From NCBI GenBank assembly GCA_036500765.1, contig DASYBM010000004.1:62001-126000 (forward strand): a DNA stretch of 64,000 bases, given 5' to 3'. The stretch is from Candidatus Sulfotelmatobacter sp. Lineage in GTDB: Bacteria; Acidobacteriota; Terriglobia; Terriglobales; Acidobacteriaceae. The stretch's first letter is position 1; each line of letters opens with the position of its first letter. Under the pieces are notes generated by a model. That model was given only the letters and a program-made list of their open reading frames with translations, made no database searches and was not told the DNA's origin. Positions 46,725 through 58,323 of this stretch are shown one piece after another. Made by a program: the position numbers and the translations under genes.

Positions 46725-46728
46725 AATC

Positions 46729-46763
46729 AGCTTCTAGGTTTTAGCCGTTAGCTCTTAGCTTCA
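46729..46763. repeat. Heptad repeat array (AGNNNNN x5)
   Basis: Five consecutive 7-bp units beginning AG (AGCTTCT, AGGTTTT, AGCCGTT, AGCTCTT, AGCTTCA) just after the PilZ protein stop. Partly complementary to the array at 46822-46877 on the other side of the terminator. Confidence 0.75.
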
Positions 46764-46774
46764 AAACAAAAAAA

Positions 46775-46807
46775 GCCTCTGCACGAACGCAGAGGCTTTG
46801 GTTTTTT
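46775..46807. terminator. Bidirectional terminator between the PilZ protein gene and atpE
   Basis: GCCTCTGC-acgaac-GCAGAGGC, an 8-bp GC-rich stem, flanked by seven A on the left and TTTGGTTTTTT on the right, so it can end transcription from both converging units. Heptad repeats flank it on each side. Confidence 0.88.
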
Positions 46808-46821
46808 GGGTCGAAATCTAA

Positions 46822-46877
46822 GAGCTAAGAGCTGAACGCTGAAAGCTGAACGCTGAAAGCTGAAAGCTGAAAGCTGC
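46822..46877. repeat. Heptad repeat array (AAGCTGA-type x8)
   Basis: Eight 7-bp units (GAGCTAA, GAGCTGA, ACGCTGA, AAGCTGA, ACGCTGA, AAGCTGA twice, AAGCTGC). It ends at the base next to the atpE stop codon. Confidence 0.85.
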
Positions 46878-48136: not shown

Positions 48137-48139
48137 GAA

Positions 48140-48201
48140 GGCTTTTGGCTCTTAGCTCTAGGCTTTTAGCTTTGTCGCGCCGCTTCCGGCTGTCTGCTTT
48201 A
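48140..48201. repeat. Heptad repeat array upstream of atpB
   Basis: GGCTTTT, GGCTCTT, AGCTCTA, GGCTTTT, AGCTTTG, then CGCTTCC, GGCTGTC, TGCTTTA. It fills the gap between the atpI stop (48199) and the atpB start (48136), ending 3 nt from the ATG. Confidence 0.75.
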
Positions 48202-49174: not shown

Positions 49175-50680
49175 CTAGTGCCCCAGCCTGGCAACGCTCG
49201 GATTTTGCGCAATCCCCAGCGCCCAATTCACCAGTTCGATGGAACTATTCGGCAACAGCCCGATATAGAGCGTTGCGATCCCGGCTACGGCGATCCCCAC
49301 GCGCATGGCGAGACTGATGGGAAGCGTCTCCTCGCCCTTCTCGGCCTTGCCCATGAACATCGCGTTAGCGATCTTCAGATAGTAGTAAAGCCCGAAAACG
49401 GAGTAGAGAACGCCCAGCGAGGCCAGTGCGTAGTGGCCGCTTTCCATCAGGCTGAGAAAGATAAAATACTTGCCCCAAAATCCGGCCAGCGGCGGAATGC
49501 CGGCCAGCGAGAGCATGAAGATCAGCATCAGCACGGCTTCGACTGGCGCGCGCGAATACAGTCCGTTAAGGTCGTCAAGTTCGTCACCAATCACGTTGCG
49601 ATGGCGGAGGGCCGTGATCACCCCGAAGGCTCCAATGTTCATGAACGTGTAGACCAGCAGATAGATCAGGATGCCCTTGATGCCGTCAGGATTGAGTTGC
49701 GTCGCGGTGCCGGCGATGAGGCCGAGCAGCATGTAGCCGACGTGCGCAATCGACGAGTAAGCGAGCAGGCGCTTGGTGTTGGTCTGGGTGAGGGCGGCGA
49801 GGTTGGCGCCGGTCATGGTGGCGATGGCGACGAACACCAGCAGCGGCACCCAGATCGGCCGCATGGGCATGAGGCCGACCACGAGGATGCGCAGCAGCAT
49901 GGCCCATCCCGCCGCCTTGACTGCGACCGACATGAAACCCGTGATGCTGGTGGGAGCGCCTTCATACGCGTCGGGAGCCCATTGATGAAACGGGATGGCG
50001 GCAATTTTGAAAAGCAGTCCGGTAATCGTAGTTACGAGCGCCACGATGGCGACCGGCTTGTATTGCGGGTCGTTCATGGTGTGCGCGAGTTGCTGGTTGA
50101 TGACGGCCAGACTGGTGCTGCCGGATAATCCGTAGAGCAACGAAAGTCCGTAGGCAAAAATGCCGGAAGAGAATGCGCCAAGCAATAAGTATTTCAGCGC
50201 GGCTTCGTTCGATCGCCGGTCGCGGCGCAGAAAGCCGACGAGCACATAAGTGGAAATGGCCATCAACTCGAGGCCAATAAAGATAAGGACGATGTCGAAG
50301 CCCGCGGCCATGCACATCATTCCAGCCACCGAGAGCAGCATCAACGCATAATATTCGCCGTGATTTTCGTGTTCTTTTTCCAGATAAGTGGCCGACAGAA
50401 GAATGGCAATGGCGGTAGCAGCGAGAAAAAGATAAAAGAAAAAAAGGGCGAACCGGTCGACCAGCATGGTGCGCATCATGCCCAGGCTGCCGGGCGACGC
50501 GGCCATCCACAGCTGAATTTTATAAACTCCGGCCGCAGAAAACAGCACGCCCACGAATGCGGTTACCGCGTTCGCCCATTTCATCTCTTTGGGCATCATC
50601 AAATCGATCAACAGAATGCCCAGCGCGAACAGCACCAGCAGCGTGATCGGCAGCGCCAGAAGATAGTCAGTCCACTGCAC
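49175..50680 (-). CDS. nuoN: NADH-quinone oxidoreductase subunit N
   Basis: 501 residues, about 14 transmembrane helices, Mrp-antiporter-like. The family pattern includes FIGLELMAISTYVLVGF (conserved Glu), KYLLLGAFSSGIFAYGLSLLYG, PFHQWAPDAYEGAPT and LLAYSSIAHVGYMLLG. A proton-pumping module of complex I. It begins with GTG directly after the nuoM TAA, so translation is coupled. Confidence 0.95.
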   Translation of the reverse strand: MQWTDYLLALPITLLVLFALGILLIDLMMPKEMKWANAVTAFVGVLFSAAGVYKIQLWMAASPGSLGMMRTMLVDRFALFFFYLFLAATAIAILLSATYLEKEHENHGEYYALMLLSVAGMMCMAAGFDIVLIFIGLELMAISTYVLVGFLRRDRRSNEAALKYLLLGAFSSGIFAYGLSLLYGLSGSTSLAVINQQLAHTMNDPQYKPVAIVALVTTITGLLFKIAAIPFHQWAPDAYEGAPTSITGFMSVAVKAAGWAMLLRILVVGLMPMRPIWVPLLVFVAIATMTGANLAALTQTNTKRLLAYSSIAHVGYMLLGLIAGTATQLNPDGIKGILIYLLVYTFMNIGAFGVITALRHRNVIGDELDDLNGLYSRAPVEAVLMLIFMLSLAGIPPLAGFWGKYFIFLSLMESGHYALASLGVLYSVFGLYYYLKIANAMFMGKAEKGEETLPISLAMRVGIAVAGIATLYIGLLPNSSIELVNWALGIAQNPSVARLGH

Positions 50681-52360
<1,680 letters not shown>

Positions 52361-52363
52361 AAA

Positions 52364-52450
52364 AGCTTCTAGCTTCTAGCTCCTGGCTTCTAGCTATTAC
52401 GCCTTGGCTTTTAGTTTTGGCTAGAAGCCAGGAGCTAGCAGCTAGAAGCT
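52364..52450. repeat. Heptad-built hairpin between nuoL and nuoM
   Basis: Left arm 52364-52394 made of AGCTTCT, AGCTTCT, AGCTCCT, GGCTTCT, AGC. Right arm 52420-52450 is its reverse complement with one mismatch over 31 bp; loop 25 nt. It begins 4 nt after the nuoL stop and ends 3 nt before the nuoM ATG (minus-strand sense). Nearly identical to the copy at 55011. Confidence 0.92.
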
Positions 52451-52454
52451 GCTT

Positions 52455-54587
52455 TCAGTGATACACGTAATAAAACGCAAAACCTACCAACCCCGCGGTC
52501 ATGACCAGCGCATACCATTGCACCAGTCCCCACTCGAATAGCCGAGCGGGATAACTTAACATGCGCGCCAGAATCGCAGGGCCGTTTACGCCAATGCCGT
52601 CAATGATCCACTTATCCCACCAACTGGAAATTGTGGCCGTTAGGCGGGTCATCCATCCCGCGGCGTTGACGGCGCCGTCGATCACATTCGTGTCGAACCA
52701 AGCACTGGCCTCTCCTAAGCCCAATACACCGAGTCGCAGGTCTCCCATTTTGCGCCGGCCAGTGAAGAGGTAATCATAGCCTTGGTCCACGTAATATTTG
52801 TTGAGCAGCGTGTTGTACAAAGGCGGAGCGGCGGCCGCTATCGGCTCGGAATAACCTTTGTCGGCATTCCGATAGCTGCGCCACGCCATGGCCCATCCCG
52901 CTCCTGCCGCGGCGAGCGATAGTCCCATCAGGAGCCATTCCGTGCTGGTGTTTTTCTCTTCCTCTTTTTCGCCGGCTGCGAGTTGCCCGGCCTTGCCTTC
53001 TTCCGTCAGAGTCTGCGCTTCTCCGGCGAATACCGGCTCCAGAAATTTCGTGAACCGGTCGGACCCGCCCAGGCTGTGCGGCCAGCCCAGCCATCCGGCG
53101 CCGAGCGCGCAAACTGCCAGCACGACTAACGGCACGATCATCGACTTCGGCGACTCGTGAATATGATGTTCGACCTCATGGCTCATGCGCCCGTGGCCGT
53201 GAAAGGTCAGATACATCAGCCGGAACATATAAAACGACGTCATCAACGCGGTCGCATAGCCCACATACCACAAAACGCGGAATGCGCCCGCTTCGCGCGA
53301 CCATGTTTCCCACAGAATCGCATCTTTCGAGAAAAATCCGGCAAAGGGAAAAATTCCCGCTATCGCCAGTGTCGCGATGAACATAGTCGCATGCGTGATG
53401 GGGATGCGCTGGTGCAGGCCGCCCATGTTGCGCATATCCTGCTCGCCGCTCATGGCGTGAATCACCGAGCCCGCGCCGAGGAAGAGCAGCGCTTTAAAGA
53501 ATGCATGCGTGAAGACGTGAAAAACGCCGGCCGCAAACGCGCCCACGCCCAGCGCCAGAAACATGTAACCGAGTTGCGAAACGGTGGAGTAGGCGAGCAC
53601 CCGCTTGATATCGTTTTGTACCAGCCCGATTGATGCGGCAAAGATGGCCGTCAGCGCCCCGACGATGGCGACGACCAGCATCGACTTCGGGGCAAGCACG
53701 AACAGCGCGTTCGATCGCGCGACCATGTAAACGCCCGCCGTGACCATGGTCGCCGCATGGATCAGCGCGGAAACCGGCGTAGGCCCTTCCATCGCATCAG
53801 GCAGCCAGACATAAAGCGGAAGCTGCGCCGACTTCCCGCATGCGCCCACAAACAGCAGAAGCGTGGCCGCGGTAATGATTGGGTCGCCGATTGCGAAGTG
53901 CCCGCTGCGCGCGGCGGCCGTCACATCGATGAAGCGCAATGATCCCATCAACCAGGCGATGAAGAACATGCCGAGAATAAATCCCGCATCGCCGATGCGA
54001 TTGACGATGAAAGCCTTGGCGGCGGCGTCGCTGGCTGACTTGCGATGAAAATAAAATCCGATCAGCAGATACGAGCACAGCCCGACGCCTTCCCAGCCAA
54101 CGAACATGAGCACATAGTTATTGGCCAGAATCAGCGTCAGCATCGAGAACATGAAGAGGTTGAGGTATCCGAAGAAGCGGTAGTACCCCTCCTCATGCGC
54201 CATGTATCCGGTGGAATAAATATGGATCAGCATCCCCACACCGGTCACGAATAGCAGCCAGATGCTGGAGAGCGGGTCGAGGAGAAATCCGGCGTCGGCC
54301 TGGAAAGGCGCCGAAGATCCGTCGGATTTTTGGAAGTTGAGATGTCCGATGTCAGTGCCGAGCCAGGTGTAGAGAATCTTTTCGTAGGGCTGATGATTGT
54401 GGGCCGGAGCCCAGTTGTTGACGTATTGCAGCACCGCGCCGCATGCCATCAGAAAGGCCAGCACGATCGTGCCCACGCAAACCGCGCTCACCGTCGACTT
54501 CTGTAGCCGGCGCCCGAAAAAAAACATCAGCGCCGCGCCGATGGCGGGGAAGAGCGGGATGAGATAAATGTGATCGAGAAATAGCAT
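52455..54587 (-). CDS. nuoL: NADH-quinone oxidoreductase subunit L
   Basis: 710 residues, about 16 transmembrane helices. FVGWEGVGLCSYLLIGFYFHRKSA carries the conserved glutamate; PLYVWLPDAMEGPTPVSALIHAATMVTAGVY and RVLAYSTVSQLGYMFLALG are antiporter signatures. The long amphipathic lateral-helix region lies near the C-terminus. The ATG is 3 nt from a heptad hairpin. Confidence 0.95.
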   Translation of the reverse strand: MLFLDHIYLIPLFPAIGAALMFFFGRRLQKSTVSAVCVGTIVLAFLMACGAVLQYVNNWAPAHNHQPYEKILYTWLGTDIGHLNFQKSDGSSAPFQADAGFLLDPLSSIWLLFVTGVGMLIHIYSTGYMAHEEGYYRFFGYLNLFMFSMLTLILANNYVLMFVGWEGVGLCSYLLIGFYFHRKSASDAAAKAFIVNRIGDAGFILGMFFIAWLMGSLRFIDVTAAARSGHFAIGDPIITAATLLLFVGACGKSAQLPLYVWLPDAMEGPTPVSALIHAATMVTAGVYMVARSNALFVLAPKSMLVVAIVGALTAIFAASIGLVQNDIKRVLAYSTVSQLGYMFLALGVGAFAAGVFHVFTHAFFKALLFLGAGSVIHAMSGEQDMRNMGGLHQRIPITHATMFIATLAIAGIFPFAGFFSKDAILWETWSREAGAFRVLWYVGYATALMTSFYMFRLMYLTFHGHGRMSHEVEHHIHESPKSMIVPLVVLAVCALGAGWLGWPHSLGGSDRFTKFLEPVFAGEAQTLTEEGKAGQLAAGEKEEEKNTSTEWLLMGLSLAAAGAGWAMAWRSYRNADKGYSEPIAAAAPPLYNTLLNKYYVDQGYDYLFTGRRKMGDLRLGVLGLGEASAWFDTNVIDGAVNAAGWMTRLTATISSWWDKWIIDGIGVNGPAILARMLSYPARLFEWGLVQWYALVMTAGLVGFAFYYVYH

Positions 54588-54590
54588 TTG

Positions 54591-54665
54591 AGCTTCTAGC
54601 TTCTAGCTTCTAGCTTCTAGCTCAAACCACTCGCGCGGTTCGCTAGGAGCTAGCAGCTAGAAGCT
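54591..54665. repeat. Heptad-built hairpin between nuoK and nuoL
   Basis: Left arm is four AGCTTCT units plus AGCTC (54591-54623). Right arm GCTAGGAGCTAGC AGCTAGAAGCT at 54642-54665 pairs with it over 24 bp with two mismatches. It starts 6 nt after the nuoK stop and ends 3 nt before the nuoL ATG. Confidence 0.9.
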
Positions 54666-54671
54666 GTCTTT

Positions 54672-55007
54672 CTACCACTTCAATAAATTCACTTCGTCCA
54701 CGTTCACCGTCTCCTTGTTACGGAAGAAGGCGATTAGGATGCCCAGTCCTACCGCAGCTTCGGCAGCGGCATCGGTAATTACGAAAATCGCGAATACCTG
54801 CCCGTGCAGCGCAGACGGCCCATGGATGCCCTGCCAGTAACGCGAAAACGCAACCAGATTCAAATTCACGGCATTCAAAATCAGCTCAATCGACATCAAC
54901 ACAATAACCACGTTGCGTCGCGTGAGCACACCGATCACCCCCAGCAGAAACAGGGCCGCGCCGAGCACCAGATAGTGCAGCGTCGTGATGTGGAGCATGG
55001 ATTCCAT
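54672..55007 (-). CDS. nuoK: NADH-quinone oxidoreductase subunit K
   Basis: 111 residues with three transmembrane helices. It contains the family motif [21 protein letters not shown], whose glutamate is in the proton path, and [17 protein letters not shown] with the second conserved Glu. The start at 55007 keeps the 3-nt distance to the hairpin seen at nuoL and nuoM; an ATG 9 nt later is possible. Confidence 0.95.
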
Positions 55008-55010
55008 AAA

Positions 55011-55098
55011 AGCTTCTAGCTTCTAGCTCCTGGCTTCTAGCTACTGCGCCTCGACTTCTAGTGTTTGGCTAGAAGCCAGGAGCTAGCAGCTAGAAGCT
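55011..55098. repeat. Heptad-built hairpin between nuoJ and nuoK
   Basis: Left arm 55011-55041 and right arm 55068-55098, identical in both arms to the element at 52364 (31-bp stem, one mismatch); only the 26-nt loop differs. It starts 5 nt after the nuoJ stop and ends 3 nt before the nuoK ATG. Confidence 0.92.
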
Positions 55099-55103
55099 GT
55101 TTT

Positions 55104-55652
55104 TCAAATCCTCTTCTTCGCCATTACCACCGCCCCGATAATCGCCACCAGCAGCAGCAGGGAAGCGATTTCGAAGGCGAACATGTATTGCCCTCGATTC
55201 ACATCGAACAGCAGGGTCGCGACTTGTTGCGTATTTTGCGTTTCCCCGTAAGTCAGGCGGCCTTCCGGGAAGAGCGCTTTGCCTTTCGTCGAGGCGGTAT
55301 AAACGCCGATGAAAAGCCCGCCCAGAGCTGCCGCCGCAGCGATTCCGACCAGCCACTGTTTGTTGAACTGCCGCTCTTTCACCGAGCGCTCCATGTTGAT
55401 CAGCATGATCACAAACAGGAACAGCACCATGATTCCGCCGGCATAAAGAATGATTTGCACGCCGGCGACGAACGGCGCATAGAGCATCAGGTAAAGTCCG
55501 GCCTGCGCCAGCAGCGCCGTGATCAACGCCATCGCCGAATGAATGGCGCTCTTCCGCGTGATCACCAGGATGCCGCCGATGATCATCGTCGCAGCCAGCA
55601 GATAAAAGAAGAATGGAGTCGCGACCGGAGGATTTGTCCCAACGGGATTCAT
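55104..55652 (-). CDS. nuoJ: NADH-quinone oxidoreductase subunit J
   Basis: 182 residues with about five transmembrane helices. FFYLLAATMIIGGILVITRKSAIHSAMALI and VAGVQIILYAGGIMVLFLFVIMLIN are NuoJ/ND6 signatures. The ATG at 55652 overlaps the nuoH stop (ATGA). The same frame is open far upstream within nuoH and that part is rejected. nuoI, which normally sits between H and J, is missing. Confidence 0.94.
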   Translation of the reverse strand: MNPVGTNPPVATPFFFYLLAATMIIGGILVITRKSAIHSAMALITALLAQAGLYLMLYAPFVAGVQIILYAGGIMVLFLFVIMLINMERSVKERQFNKQWLVGIAAAAALGGLFIGVYTASTKGKALFPEGRLTYGETQNTQQVATLLFDVNRGQYMFAFEIASLLLLVAIIGAVVMAKKRI

Positions 55653-56989
55653 GGGCGCACTCCTGTCAGTTGGGCCCAGAGTTCGGCCCGCATGGCGACA
55701 ACCGCGGTCAGGATCAATAGCGCCAATCCGGTCGGCAGCAGAACTTTCCATCCTACTTTCATGAGTTGGTCGAAGCGATATCGCGGGAACGTGCCACGAT
55801 ACCAGATATACAGGTACATGAACGCGGCAACTTTGGCGCAGAACCAGAAAATGTCGCCGACCCGGTCGCGCACCGGCGGAATGAACATCGCCATCCCGAT
55901 AAATCCGAGCACAACTCCAAACCCGGCCAAGCCAATGGTTTGAACCTTGAAGAGCGGATGCTTTGGCATTCGCGCGGTGTTGTAGAAGCAGATCGCGGCG
56001 AAAAGCAGGAATGTGATTCCGGGGAAGAGGGAGAAGACTAAGTCCCATGTGGGGCCGCTGAGCGCGTTGGGAAACGGCCGCAGCCATCCGCCCAGCCACA
56101 GCGTGACCGCGATGGACGAGACGGCGATCATTGCGGAATATTCTGCCAGGAAAAATAATGACCACCGGAAGCCCGAGTACTCGGTGTGGAACCCTGCGGT
56201 CAACTCGGACTCGGCCTCCGGCAGATCGAAAGGCGCGCGGTTGGTCTCGGCCACCATCGCGATCGCGAAGATAAAAAATCCGATCAGGCCGAGGGGGAAG
56301 AATTTGAAAATGTACCATTCGCCCGCCGCCTGCTGCGCCTGCACAATGCCGATCATGCTGAGAGTGCCGGTGCCCGTTTCCAGGCTCGTCATGATAATGA
56401 CCGAGACCACTGCCAGTCCCATCGCGACTTCATACGAAACCATCTGCGCGCTCGAACGCAGCGCACCGATCAGCGGATAGTGAGAGTTTGAGGCCCATCC
56501 TGCGGTGACGATTCCAAGCACGCTCAACGATGAAACGCCGAGCATGAAGAGGATGCCGATGTTCATGTCGGTAATGGCGTGCTGCGGCCCGAACGGCACA
56601 ACGACGAACACAGTAAACGCCGCCAGCACGACGATGAATGGCGCGATCCAGAACACCAGTTTGTCGGCTTCGGCCGGGATGATGTCTTCTTTCAGCAACA
56701 ATTTGAGAGCGTCGGCAATCGGTTGCAGCAGTCCGTGCGGGCCTACGCGCATCGGCCCCAGCCGCACCTGCATGTGCGCCAGAATCTTGCGCTCCAGCCA
56801 GTTCATCGCGATCACAGCGACCGAGAGTCCGCCGAACACGAGCAGGATGTAAACCGTGGCCCAGAAGATATTGCCCGCGGCCCCAGGAGTTTTGTCGCTT
56901 GCGAGGTAGGACTGGATGTACTCGATCACGTCATGGATCGTCGGGACGTATGCAGCCAATCCGCTCGTGGTCAAGATGAATCCGGCCAT
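55649..56989 (-). CDS. nuoH: NADH-quinone oxidoreductase subunit H
   Basis: 446 residues, eight or nine transmembrane helices. The quinone-site region is present: ERKILAHMQVRLGPMRVGPHGLLQPIADALKLLLKED and FAIAMVAETNRAPFDLPEAESELTAGFHTEYSG. Longer than the typical 320-350 residues, mainly through an N-terminal extension and insertions. The start overlaps the nuoD stop (TAATG). Confidence 0.96.
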   Translation of the reverse strand: MAGFILTTSGLAAYVPTIHDVIEYIQSYLASDKTPGAAGNIFWATVYILLVFGGLSVAVIAMNWLERKILAHMQVRLGPMRVGPHGLLQPIADALKLLLKEDIIPAEADKLVFWIAPFIVVLAAFTVFVVVPFGPQHAITDMNIGILFMLGVSSLSVLGIVTAGWASNSHYPLIGALRSSAQMVSYEVAMGLAVVSVIIMTSLETGTGTLSMIGIVQAQQAAGEWYIFKFFPLGLIGFFIFAIAMVAETNRAPFDLPEAESELTAGFHTEYSGFRWSLFFLAEYSAMIAVSSIAVTLWLGGWLRPFPNALSGPTWDLVFSLFPGITFLLFAAICFYNTARMPKHPLFKVQTIGLAGFGVVLGFIGMAMFIPPVRDRVGDIFWFCAKVAAFMYLYIWYRGTFPRYRFDQLMKVGWKVLLPTGLALLILTAVVAMRAELWAQLTGVRP

Positions 56990-58140
56990 TAGCGGTCTAC
57001 CTCGCCCAGAACAATGTCGAGCGTGCCGATCACCGCGATCACATCAGCGACAAGTTGCCCGCGGCACATCATGTCAAGCGCCTGCAAATTTACAAAGCTC
57101 GGCGGCCGCACTCGCACGCGGTAGGGTTGAGTCGAGCCGTCGCTTACGACGAAATATCCCAGCTCGCCCTTCGGCGCTTCGATCGAGTGATAGATCTCGC
57201 CCACCGGCGGCTTCATCACCTTCGGCACCTTCGCCATGATCGGCCCCTCGGGAATGTTCTCGACTGCCTGCTCGATAATCCGCAGCGACTGCCGGAACTC
57301 CGCCATGCGCACGATGTACCGGTCGTATGTGTCGCCGTGCTCGCCCGTCGGAATATCGAATTCGAAATTCTTGTAGTTAGCGTAGGGCTGCGCTTTGCGA
57401 ATGTCCCACTTCACGCCGCTCGCGCGCAGCACCGGCCCGGTTACGCCCAGCGCGATCGCGTCTTTAGCAGAAATTGTTCCCACGCCCTTGGTGCGTTCCA
57501 GCCAGATGCGGTTCGTGGTGAGCAGTTCCTCGTACTCGTCGATCTTCGGCCGCACGAACTTGACGAAGTTTCTTACTTCCTGCTCGAAGCCTTCGTAAGT
57601 TTCATATTGCAATCCGCCAATGCGAAACGCATGTGTGGTAAGCCGCGCACCGCAATACTTCTCGAAAATTTTGAGAATCTCTTCGCGGTCGCGAAATGTA
57701 TAAAAGAGTGGCGTAATCGCGCCAATGTCTAGCGCGTGAGTTCCCAGCCAAAGCTGATGGCTGGCCATGCGATTCAATTCGGTCAGAATCACGCGGACGT
57801 ATTGCGCCCGCGGCGGCGCTTCCACATTAAGCAGCTTTTCGACCGCCTCGCAATATCCCAGCCCGTTCGAGACCGCCGCGACGTAATCCATGCGGTCGAC
57901 ATAGGGATTGAACATCGTGTAGGTGCGGTTCTCGGCAATTTTCTCGACGCCGCGATGCAGATATCCGATCACGCACTCCAGCCCAAGAACCTTTTCGCCA
58001 TCCAGCCGCAGAATCACACGCAACACGCCGTGCGTCGCGGGATGCTGCGGGCCCATATTGATGACCAGTTCGTTCGCATCCAGAAACGTCTTGTCCGGCG
58101 TGTCCAGGTCGAGCGGCGAGAGTGTGTTGGGGTCGGTCAT
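56989..58140 (-). CDS. nuoD: NADH-quinone oxidoreductase subunit D
   Basis: A 383-residue 49-kDa subunit. [22 protein letters not shown] holds the quinone-binding histidines, with [16 protein letters not shown], and [26 protein letters not shown] at the C-terminus. It is a separate gene from nuoC. A ten-unit heptad array lies 6 nt upstream of its ATG. Confidence 0.96.
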
Positions 58141-58146
58141 TGAATC

Positions 58147-58216
58147 GGTCGTTGGTCGTTGGTCGTTAGTCGTTAGTCTTCGGTCGTCGGTCGTTAGTCG
58201 TCAGTTGTCGGCTCGT
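58147..58216. repeat. Heptad repeat array upstream of nuoD (GGTCGTT-type x10)
   Basis: Ten 7-bp units: GGTCGTT three times, AGTCGTT, AGTCTTC, GGTCGTC, GGTCGTT, AGTCGTC, AGTTGTC, GGCTCGT. It starts 6 nt from the nuoD ATG. Same period as the other arrays but a different core sequence. Confidence 0.9.
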
Positions 58217-58239
58217 CCTCAATTTTCCCTCTCGCCGGC

Positions 58240-58286
58240 GTCATCCCGATGCCTCGCGCTTTCTCCAGCGAGGCAAGGGATCTCGT
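58240..58286. repeat. GTCATCC-type dispersed repeat
   Basis: Begins GTCATCCCGA and ends near AAGGGATCTCG. It matches the layout of other copies in the window (GTCATCC, then GAGCGA or AGCGAGG, then GGATCT). In the nuoC-nuoD gap. Confidence 0.5.
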
Positions 58287-58323
58287 GAGCGCTATGCTGA
58301 ACCGATGAGGCCATGCCGCGCGC

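What the first reader, a model, noticed from the sequence alone, without database searches (positions are those of the whole stretch)
52364..55098. Heptad-built hairpins sit exactly 3 nt before the start codons of nuoK, nuoL and nuoM
Seen directly: three long inverted repeats made of degenerate AGCTTCT-type 7-mers occupy the whole gaps nuoJ-nuoK, nuoK-nuoL and nuoL-nuoM. Each starts 4-6 nt after a stop and ends 3 nt before an ATG. Two have identical 31-bp arms. No ribosome site is visible upstream of these three genes, because the hairpin occupies that space. Inference: the elements either inserted precisely or expanded between ORFs, and they may set translation or mRNA stability of individual complex I subunits.
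Basis: partly seen in the sequence, partly recalled or inferred. Interest (0 to 1): 0.8.

Follow-up and report, generated by a model that had tools for sequence, protein, structure and literature searches.

The report
Interchangeable seven-base hairpins between complex-I genes
In soil bacteria of the genus Candidatus Sulfotelmatobacter the gaps between respiratory complex-I genes are often filled by hairpins built of imperfect seven-base repeats; different species use different repeat "words" in the same gap, yet the two halves of each hairpin still tend to match, which suggests a known class of bacterial repeat kept as a structure rather than as a sequence.

Summary
Three heptad hairpins fill the nuoJ-K, K-L and L-M gaps, starting 4-6 nt after a stop and ending 3 nt before an ATG. 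The J-K element is a copy of L-M or the reverse: 0 of 63 stem positions differ, against 6 of 25 loop positions.

They are not unique. In about 1.66 Mb from six genomes of the genus, 79 arrays of period 7 lie in gaps, against 2-13 for the other periods from 4 to 13. The window and near relatives hold heptads in 29 of 34 K-L, 25 of 30 L-M and 14 of 32 J-K gaps, often with another word. The two arms change together (0 of 20,000 permutations in each gap).

Genome-wide the anchor is the stop codon; enrichment at starts is weak. "3 nt before the start" is mostly what filling a short gap looks like. Genes right after arrays do lack Shine-Dalgarno cores (2 of 16 have one, against 402 of 1156).

Inverted heptameric repeats near stops are published for Xanthomonas, heptads at SD-less starts for Beggiatoaceae. 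This is a new variant of that kind. I favour an RNA stem-loop that separates cistrons; neutral, structurally maintained DNA is the main rival.

The parts
55008..55103 (-). nuoJ-nuoK gap: heptad hairpin, arms about 55011-55041 and 55068-55098
54588..54671 (-). nuoK-nuoL gap: heptad hairpin, less perfect arms, about 54591-54624 and 54642-54665
52361..52454 (-). nuoL-nuoM gap: heptad hairpin, arms 52364-52394 and 52420-52450; 93% identical to the J-K element
55104..55652 (-). nuoJ (stop 5 nt before the first AGCTTCT heptad)
54672..55007 (-). nuoK
52455..54587 (-). nuoL
50681..52360 (-). nuoM; follows the L-M hairpin and abuts nuoN without a gap
58141..58323 (-). nuoC-nuoD gap: one-sided heptad array of another word (ACGACYN) ending next to the nuoD start
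48137..48198 (-). gap before atpB: one-sided degenerate heptads (GCTAAGA-like) ending a few nt before the start
   Evidence: read by eye
46725..46877 (.). convergent gap: heptad arms (TTAGC and GCTGAAA words) around a nested terminator-like stem-loop

Best explanation
The three elements belong to a genus-wide class of intergenic heptad hairpins. SHOWN: 7-nt units; in most paired cases a 5' arm starting within a few nt of a stop codon; a 3' arm complementary to it; words that differ between species at the same gap while the arms stay matched; stems more conserved than loops; a heptad-unit indel; and one whole-element copy inside the operon. INFERRED: arrays grow and shrink by 7-nt slippage and are sometimes replaced whole by an element of another word; what is kept is the ability to pair. 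INFERRED MECHANISM: in the mRNA the stem-loop stands directly behind the stop codon and separates neighbouring cistrons, blocking 3'-to-5' decay of the upstream cistron and drift of terminating ribosomes into the next gene. Where the gap is short, as in nuo, the 3' arm also occupies the next start region, whose SD is missing, so initiation there has to be SD-independent or depend on stem opening.
For: Period 7 stands alone: 79 arrays in gaps of six genomes against 2-13 for other periods from 4 to 13; 46 non-coding against 4 coding in 864 kb of the own genome. Orthologous gaps (distinct, 40-260 nt): lag 7 is the best lag in 28 of 30 K-L, 24 of 26 L-M and 16 of 27 J-K gaps of the window and near relatives, against 2 of 13, 5 of 16 and 0 of 1 in outgroups. 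Arm coupling with arms defined by position only: matched duplexes -26.4/-28.7/-39.8 kcal/mol (J-K, K-L, L-M; 26, 30 and 26 gaps) against -19.5/-21.3/-28.3 mismatched, 0 of 20,000 permutations each. Opposite units match better than non-opposite ones in 41 hairpins, worse in 7, tied in 13 of 61; 0 of 3000 permutations. Covariation: 10 of 20 pairs change on both sides, 38 cells against 13.2 shuffled; score 0.354 against 0.201 shuffled and at most 0.156 when slid. Stop anchoring. Stems 11% and loops 32% divergent over 28 non-independent orthologous pairs; J-K against L-M 0 of 63 and 6 of 25. Fewer between divergent genes: 0.10 arrays/kb against 0.40 co-directional and 0.39 convergent.
Against: No expression, ribosome or RNA-structure data. 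Arrays also stand unpaired, and some lie in mid-gap. J-K is short in 4 and holds other sequence in 14 of 32 gaps, so the element is dispensable there; in the C-D gap lag 7 is best in only 4 of 11 near-relative gaps. The number of extra pair types does not exceed shuffles (19 against 17.4, 92 of 500). The placement statistics lean on the own genome: 44 of 59 co-directional arrays and 13 of 16 sampled co-directional hairpins. Convergent gaps carry arrays too, where no translational role is needed. Stem conservation is inflated because repeats align easily and pairs under 70% identity were dropped. A review (PMC12548453, passages) reports that structure right after a stop lowers coupling; this fits separation but is indirect.
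Confidence: 0.47

Rival explanations
1. Neutral or weakly selfish repeats. Heptads grow by polymerase slippage, inverted arms are made and kept complementary by template switching during replication (quasipalindrome correction), and the elements survive wherever they do not break genes or promoters, hence behind stop codons. No function in nuo.
For: Low density between divergent genes, short or different J-K gaps, a 14-nt heptad indel, fast word turnover. Rehm et al. (PMC4692102, sections 10 and 16 read) could not identify a regulatory role for similar Xanthomonas repeats and quote a slippage hypothesis.
Against: The stem mismatch shared by J-K and L-M was not corrected after copying while the loops diverged. 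Stop anchoring also in gaps of 100 nt and more (14 of 48 arrays within 15 nt, expected 6.2, p 0.0005) is tighter than tolerance alone predicts.
Confidence: 0.36
2. Start-site control: the 3' arm carries the ribosome landing site of nuoK, L and M and the hairpin hides it until a ribosome finishing the upstream gene opens the stem (translational coupling).
For: The arm reaches 3 nt from the ATG in the window; SD cores are rare at these starts (window and near relatives 10 of 92 gaps of 20 nt or more, outgroups 33 of 65). In the Beggiatoaceae genome studied, most TAACTGA repeats overlap the expected ribosome site and canonical sites are rare (PMC4679880, abstract and passages).
Against: Right arms end 0-37 nt from the start in 36 nuo hairpins and 4-393 nt in 16 sampled co-directional hairpins; weak start enrichment; the commonest words hold no SD core, although some units do (GCCAGGA); structure after a stop tends to reduce coupling (PMC12548453, passages).
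Confidence: 0.11
3. REP or MITE-like mobile hairpins spread by a tyrosine (Y1) transposase.
For: Seven Y1_Tnp matches in the genome; J-K and L-M are whole copies.
Against: No shared sequence or GTAG/CGTC end (read directly); apart from L-M no other place matches most of the element above 79%; words differ between orthologues.
Confidence: 0.04
4. Intrinsic transcription terminators or attenuators inside the operon.
For: Strong stems directly behind stops.
Against: No T-run of terminator kind after the 3' arm (four T in J-K and L-M, none in K-L); separate terminator-like stem-loops with T-runs lie beside or inside heptad gaps (46725-46877, L164, L185, read by eye).
Confidence: 0.02

Closest known systems
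GGGAATC heptameric repeats of Xanthomonas and GGGGA(C/T)T of Nostoc (Rehm et al. 2015, PMC4692102; sections 10 and 16 and passages read)
   Same: In Xanthomonas: degenerate 7-nt units, 89-93% intergenic, inverted pairs in 70 (Xcc) and 75 (Xac) cases, closer to the upstream gene (28 nt on average) than to the downstream one (160 nt), few between divergent genes, extensive length and sequence variation between two related species
   Different: One G-rich, quadruplex-forming word per lineage there; here many words without G-tracts, and the word of both arms differs between species at the same gap
TAACTGA direct repeats of Beggiatoaceae (MacGregor 2015, PMC4679880; abstract and passages seen)
   Same: Heptads just upstream of start codons in place of an SD; indels mostly in steps of 7 nt noted for two Cyanothece strains
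   Different: One word, direct arrays with a single indirect case, mostly near starts; here inverted and mainly stop-anchored
STRR heptanucleotide repeats of Calothrix (three tandem heptanucleotides are mentioned in a passage of PMC4692102; the name and details are recalled)
   Same: Tandem 7-mers
   Different: Hairpin architecture was not checked here
REP / GTAG- and CGTC-tagged palindromes (PMC3733652, passages seen)
   Same: Short palindromes outside genes
   Different: No tag, no conserved sequence, 7-nt modular arms

Membership tests
Intergenic heptameric SSR arrays with inverted pairs (Xanthomonas type) | Tandem unit of exactly 7 nt | tested here: met
Intergenic heptameric SSR arrays with inverted pairs (Xanthomonas type) | Mostly intergenic | tested here: met
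   46 non-coding against 4 coding in 864 kb
Intergenic heptameric SSR arrays with inverted pairs (Xanthomonas type) | Close to the upstream stop, few between divergent genes | tested here: met
   driven largely by the own genome
Intergenic heptameric SSR arrays with inverted pairs (Xanthomonas type) | G-rich unit able to form quadruplexes | tested here: not met
   The three window elements show no run of three G or three C (read directly); the common words GCTAGAA, GCTAAGA, ACGACYN lack G-tracts
TAACTGA-type start-codon heptads | Majority within a few nt of a start codon | tested here: not met
   13 of 54 arrays within 15 nt of a start, expected 8.6, p 0.065; true of the window's three nuo gaps
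TAACTGA-type start-codon heptads | No SD at the adjacent gene | tested here: met
   2 of 16 have a core against 402 of 1156; anti-SD assumed canonical, as the typed 16S-end pattern was not found
REP elements | GTAG or CGTC tag and conserved palindrome | tested here: not met
   sequence; only L-M matches the full J-K element
Known RNA families (Rfam 15) | Score at or above a family's gathering cut-off | tested here: not met
   Window 50000-57000: 11 matches, all to microRNA models and all below gathering
Intercistronic mRNA stabilisers or insulators | Changes decay or translation of neighbouring cistrons | not testable with these tools
   no expression data

The most novel reading that the evidence does not exclude
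A cell-encoded process writes or rewrites both arms of intergenic hairpins together, so that a gap can change its 7-mer word while keeping pairing and position; the hairpin is inherited as a shape, not as a sequence.
Probability: 0.1. Interest if true: 0.85.

Novelty: new variant of a known kind. Interest (0 to 1): 0.52.

Why it matters
A paper from 2015 states that no detailed literature on heptameric repeats in bacteria was available and that the role of those in Xanthomonas and Nostoc remained to be elucidated (PMC4692102, passages and section 16). Here a single orthologous site in many species offers a natural experiment: the sequence of the hairpin changes wholesale while pairing persists. 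That makes it possible to ask whether the structure is selected (RNA) or mechanically copied (DNA), and how genes cope with a stem of about 90 nt in the place of their ribosome site.

Tried and rejected
Rfam gave only sub-threshold microRNA models, dismissed as generic long hairpins. My first unit-shuffle test (52 of 61 above shuffles) had a biased null, because arms had been chosen for pairing; replaced by the internal-unit test. The idea that the heptad phase is locked to the start codon (RCT-NNN-ATG) was tested: 3 nt is the commonest distance in L-M (12 counts in 26 gaps) but the peaks differ between gaps and homologous flanks are shared, so it is not claimed. A rule that 5' arms are T-rich holds for 42 of 61 hairpins and fails for 17, 2 tied; not claimed as universal. 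Word sharing between gaps of one species as a sign of intragenomic copying is weak without the window (p 0.26, 0.67 and 0.034 for J-K/L-M, J-K/K-L, K-L/L-M). My first nuoJ query was in the wrong frame; J-K gaps were redone. Three K-L hairpins (L131, L132, L136) have starts that my rule set too far downstream; they were in the 39 and are dropped. Outgroup loci include paralogous nuo operons and a locus held twice (L040 and L139). In print: full listings show no paper on heptad hairpins in Acidobacteria; two searches listed only 20 of 427 and 10 of 11,210 papers and prove little; the library is open-access only.

Full report
OBSERVATION. The nuo operon lies on the minus strand. The gaps nuoJ-K (55008-55103), nuoK-L (54588-54671) and nuoL-M (52361-52454) are wholly taken up by inverted repeats of degenerate AGCTTCT heptads, starting 5, 6 and 4 nt after a stop and ending 3 nt before ATG. 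They fold far better than dinucleotide shuffles (z -9.5, -5.2, -9.1). The heptad core is about 7-fold over expectation in the window (21 against 2.9).

ORGANISM AND SPREAD. Two same-genus contigs equal in length to named records (G032:C703 with L031, 3216 bases; G009:C41 with L038, 5920 bases) identify the genus as Candidatus Sulfotelmatobacter (order Terriglobales recalled). AGCTTCTAGCTTCTAGC with up to 2 mismatches occurs 152 times in the own genome against 1 for the reversed control. It occurs at least once in 34 of 37 genomes of the genus searched (the own one included) and in 5 of 24 others, where the largest count is 7; control counts reach 8 in one genome. In 864 kb of the own genome, 46 arrays of period 7 are non-coding and 4 coding; periods 4-13 other than 7 give 0-8 non-coding. 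In 70 other named loci, from Acidobacteriota and other phyla, period 7 gives 24 arrays against 0-14 for other periods; the 24 come from 7 loci, with paired arms by eye in L040, L089 (itself a Sulfotelmatobacter record), L103 and L109. So the phenomenon is wider than the genus but patchy.

THE SAME GAPS IN RELATIVES. Of 34 K-L gaps measured in the window and near relatives 29 are heptad by my rule (lag 7 best of 4-13 and at least 0.34; a few calls are weak), 4 hold other sequence and 1 is short. For L-M the numbers are 25, 4 and 1 of 30; for J-K 14, 14 and 4 of 32. Some long "other" gaps may be mis-set starts. Outgroup gaps are short (medians 3, 13 and 12 nt in 68, 70 and 73 loci; 6, 13.5 and 16 over distinct gap sequences). 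The words differ: GCTAGAA, GCTAAGA, GCTAATT, ACTGAGA, GCTCGAA, ACGACCG and others. Some non-heptad J-K gaps carry different palindromes.

ARMS CHANGE TOGETHER. With arms defined only by position (first and last 40 nt of the gap), arms of one species pair better than arms mixed between species; none of 20,000 permutations reached the observed mean in any of the three gaps. This alone would follow if both arms simply share a word. Within 61 hairpins (39 nuo, 22 from genome samples), however, opposite heptads also match better than non-opposite ones: 41 better, 7 worse, 13 tied; 976 matches against 924 permuted, 0 of 3000 as high. On an alignment of 17 of the 25 heptad L-M gaps, chosen for alignable words, 10 of 20 pairs change on both sides and every slid control is far lower; the count of extra pair types does not exceed shuffles.

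TURNOVER. The J-K and L-M elements are 93% identical; the next best long match in the genome is 79%. Inside the element all differences lie in the loop (6 of 25), none in the stem (0 of 63), Fisher p 0.0003; 2 of 8 columns outside differ. L123 and L138, with 89-93% identical flanking coding DNA, have unrelated words in K-L (39 of 87 aligned) and a two-heptad (14-nt) indel in J-K. L129 and L134 differ in J-K by 19 nt against 80 nt of non-heptad sequence, with 90-92% flanks. Loci are mostly metagenome-assembled, so local assembly errors in repeats cannot be excluded; both flanks sit on one contig in these cases.

PLACEMENT. Genes were called by my own hexamer-based caller, so starts are approximate. 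In six genomes arrays occur at 0.40/kb in co-directional, 0.39/kb in convergent and 0.10/kb in divergent gaps (59, 13 and 7 arrays); the own genome supplies 44 of the 59, and in G012 and G014 the co-directional density (0.13, 0.14) is near the divergent one (0.10, 0.09). Without the three nuo gaps, 18 of 54 arrays in co-directional gaps of 60 nt or more lie within 15 nt of the stop (expected 8.5, p 0.0008) and 13 of 54 within 15 nt of the start (expected 8.6, p 0.065); in convergent gaps 12 of 13 lie within 15 nt of a stop (expected 6.6). For hairpins the 5' arm is closer to the stop than the 3' arm to the start in 23 of 36 nuo cases with a usable start (11 the other way, 2 ties, p 0.0015) and in 12 of 16 sampled ones (p 0.056), where 10 of 16 begin within 4 nt of the stop. 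The anchor is therefore mainly the stop; in nuo the gap is so short that the other end meets the start.

RIBOSOME SITES. Genes with an array ending within 12 nt of the start have an SD core in 2 of 16 cases, others with gaps of 28 nt or more in 402 of 1156 and with shorter gaps in 105 of 227. For nuoK, L and M, gaps of 20 nt or more in the window and near relatives have cores in 4 of 28, 2 of 34 and 4 of 30, outgroups in 8 of 11, 6 of 25 and 19 of 29. The anti-SD was assumed canonical; the 16S end was not found by the typed pattern.

READING. The elements behave as interchangeable hairpins: heptads make them easy to lengthen and shorten, and pairing is what lasts. I commit to an mRNA stem-loop that separates cistrons directly behind the stop (confidence about 0.47 for the whole statement). 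The DNA-level neutral account, with pairing maintained by replication errors that copy one arm onto the other, is close behind. A pure start-site switch is unlikely as a general role but remains possible for nuo.

KNOWN OR NEW. Rehm et al. 2015 (PMC4692102, sections 10 and 16 and passages read) describe inverted heptameric repeats in Xanthomonas with the same placement biases; MacGregor 2015 (PMC4679880, abstract and passages) describes heptads where SD sites would be. What I did not find in print (full listings; partial listings; open-access library only) is heptad hairpins in Acidobacteria and the switching of words at orthologous sites with both arms following.

Noticed in passing
window 46725-46877: Convergent gap in which heptad arms of two words surround a terminator-like stem-loop with a T-run.
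   Followed up: partly
window 58141-58323: nuoC-D gap holds a different palindromic repeat (CGAGATCCCT..CTCGCTGG..GGGATGACG type) beside the heptads; a similar sequence lies in the C-D gap of L134.
   Followed up: no
J-K gaps of L118, L122, L130, L132, L136: Other palindromes (GCGGCCCTTCAGGGCCGC, GGCACGACTTTAGTCGTGCC types) occupy the gap that holds heptads in the window.
   Followed up: partly
K-L of L118, L119, L137; J-K of L124: An inverted TGTCATCCTGAGCG...CGCTCAGGATGACA-like repeat sits inside or in place of the heptad gap.
   Followed up: no
34 stop-anchored arrays in six genomes: Because 7 is not a multiple of 3 and many words contain TAG, TAA or TGA, arrays put stops in all three frames within 45 nt in 8 of 34 cases, against 6% of 950 other genes (Fisher p about 0.001).
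   Followed up: partly
genome G000: Seven Y1 tyrosine-transposase matches, one with a stop inside; no link to the heptad elements was tested beyond sequence.
   Followed up: no
L103, L109, L040, L045: Heptad arrays of quite different words, several of them paired, in other Acidobacteriota.
   Followed up: partly
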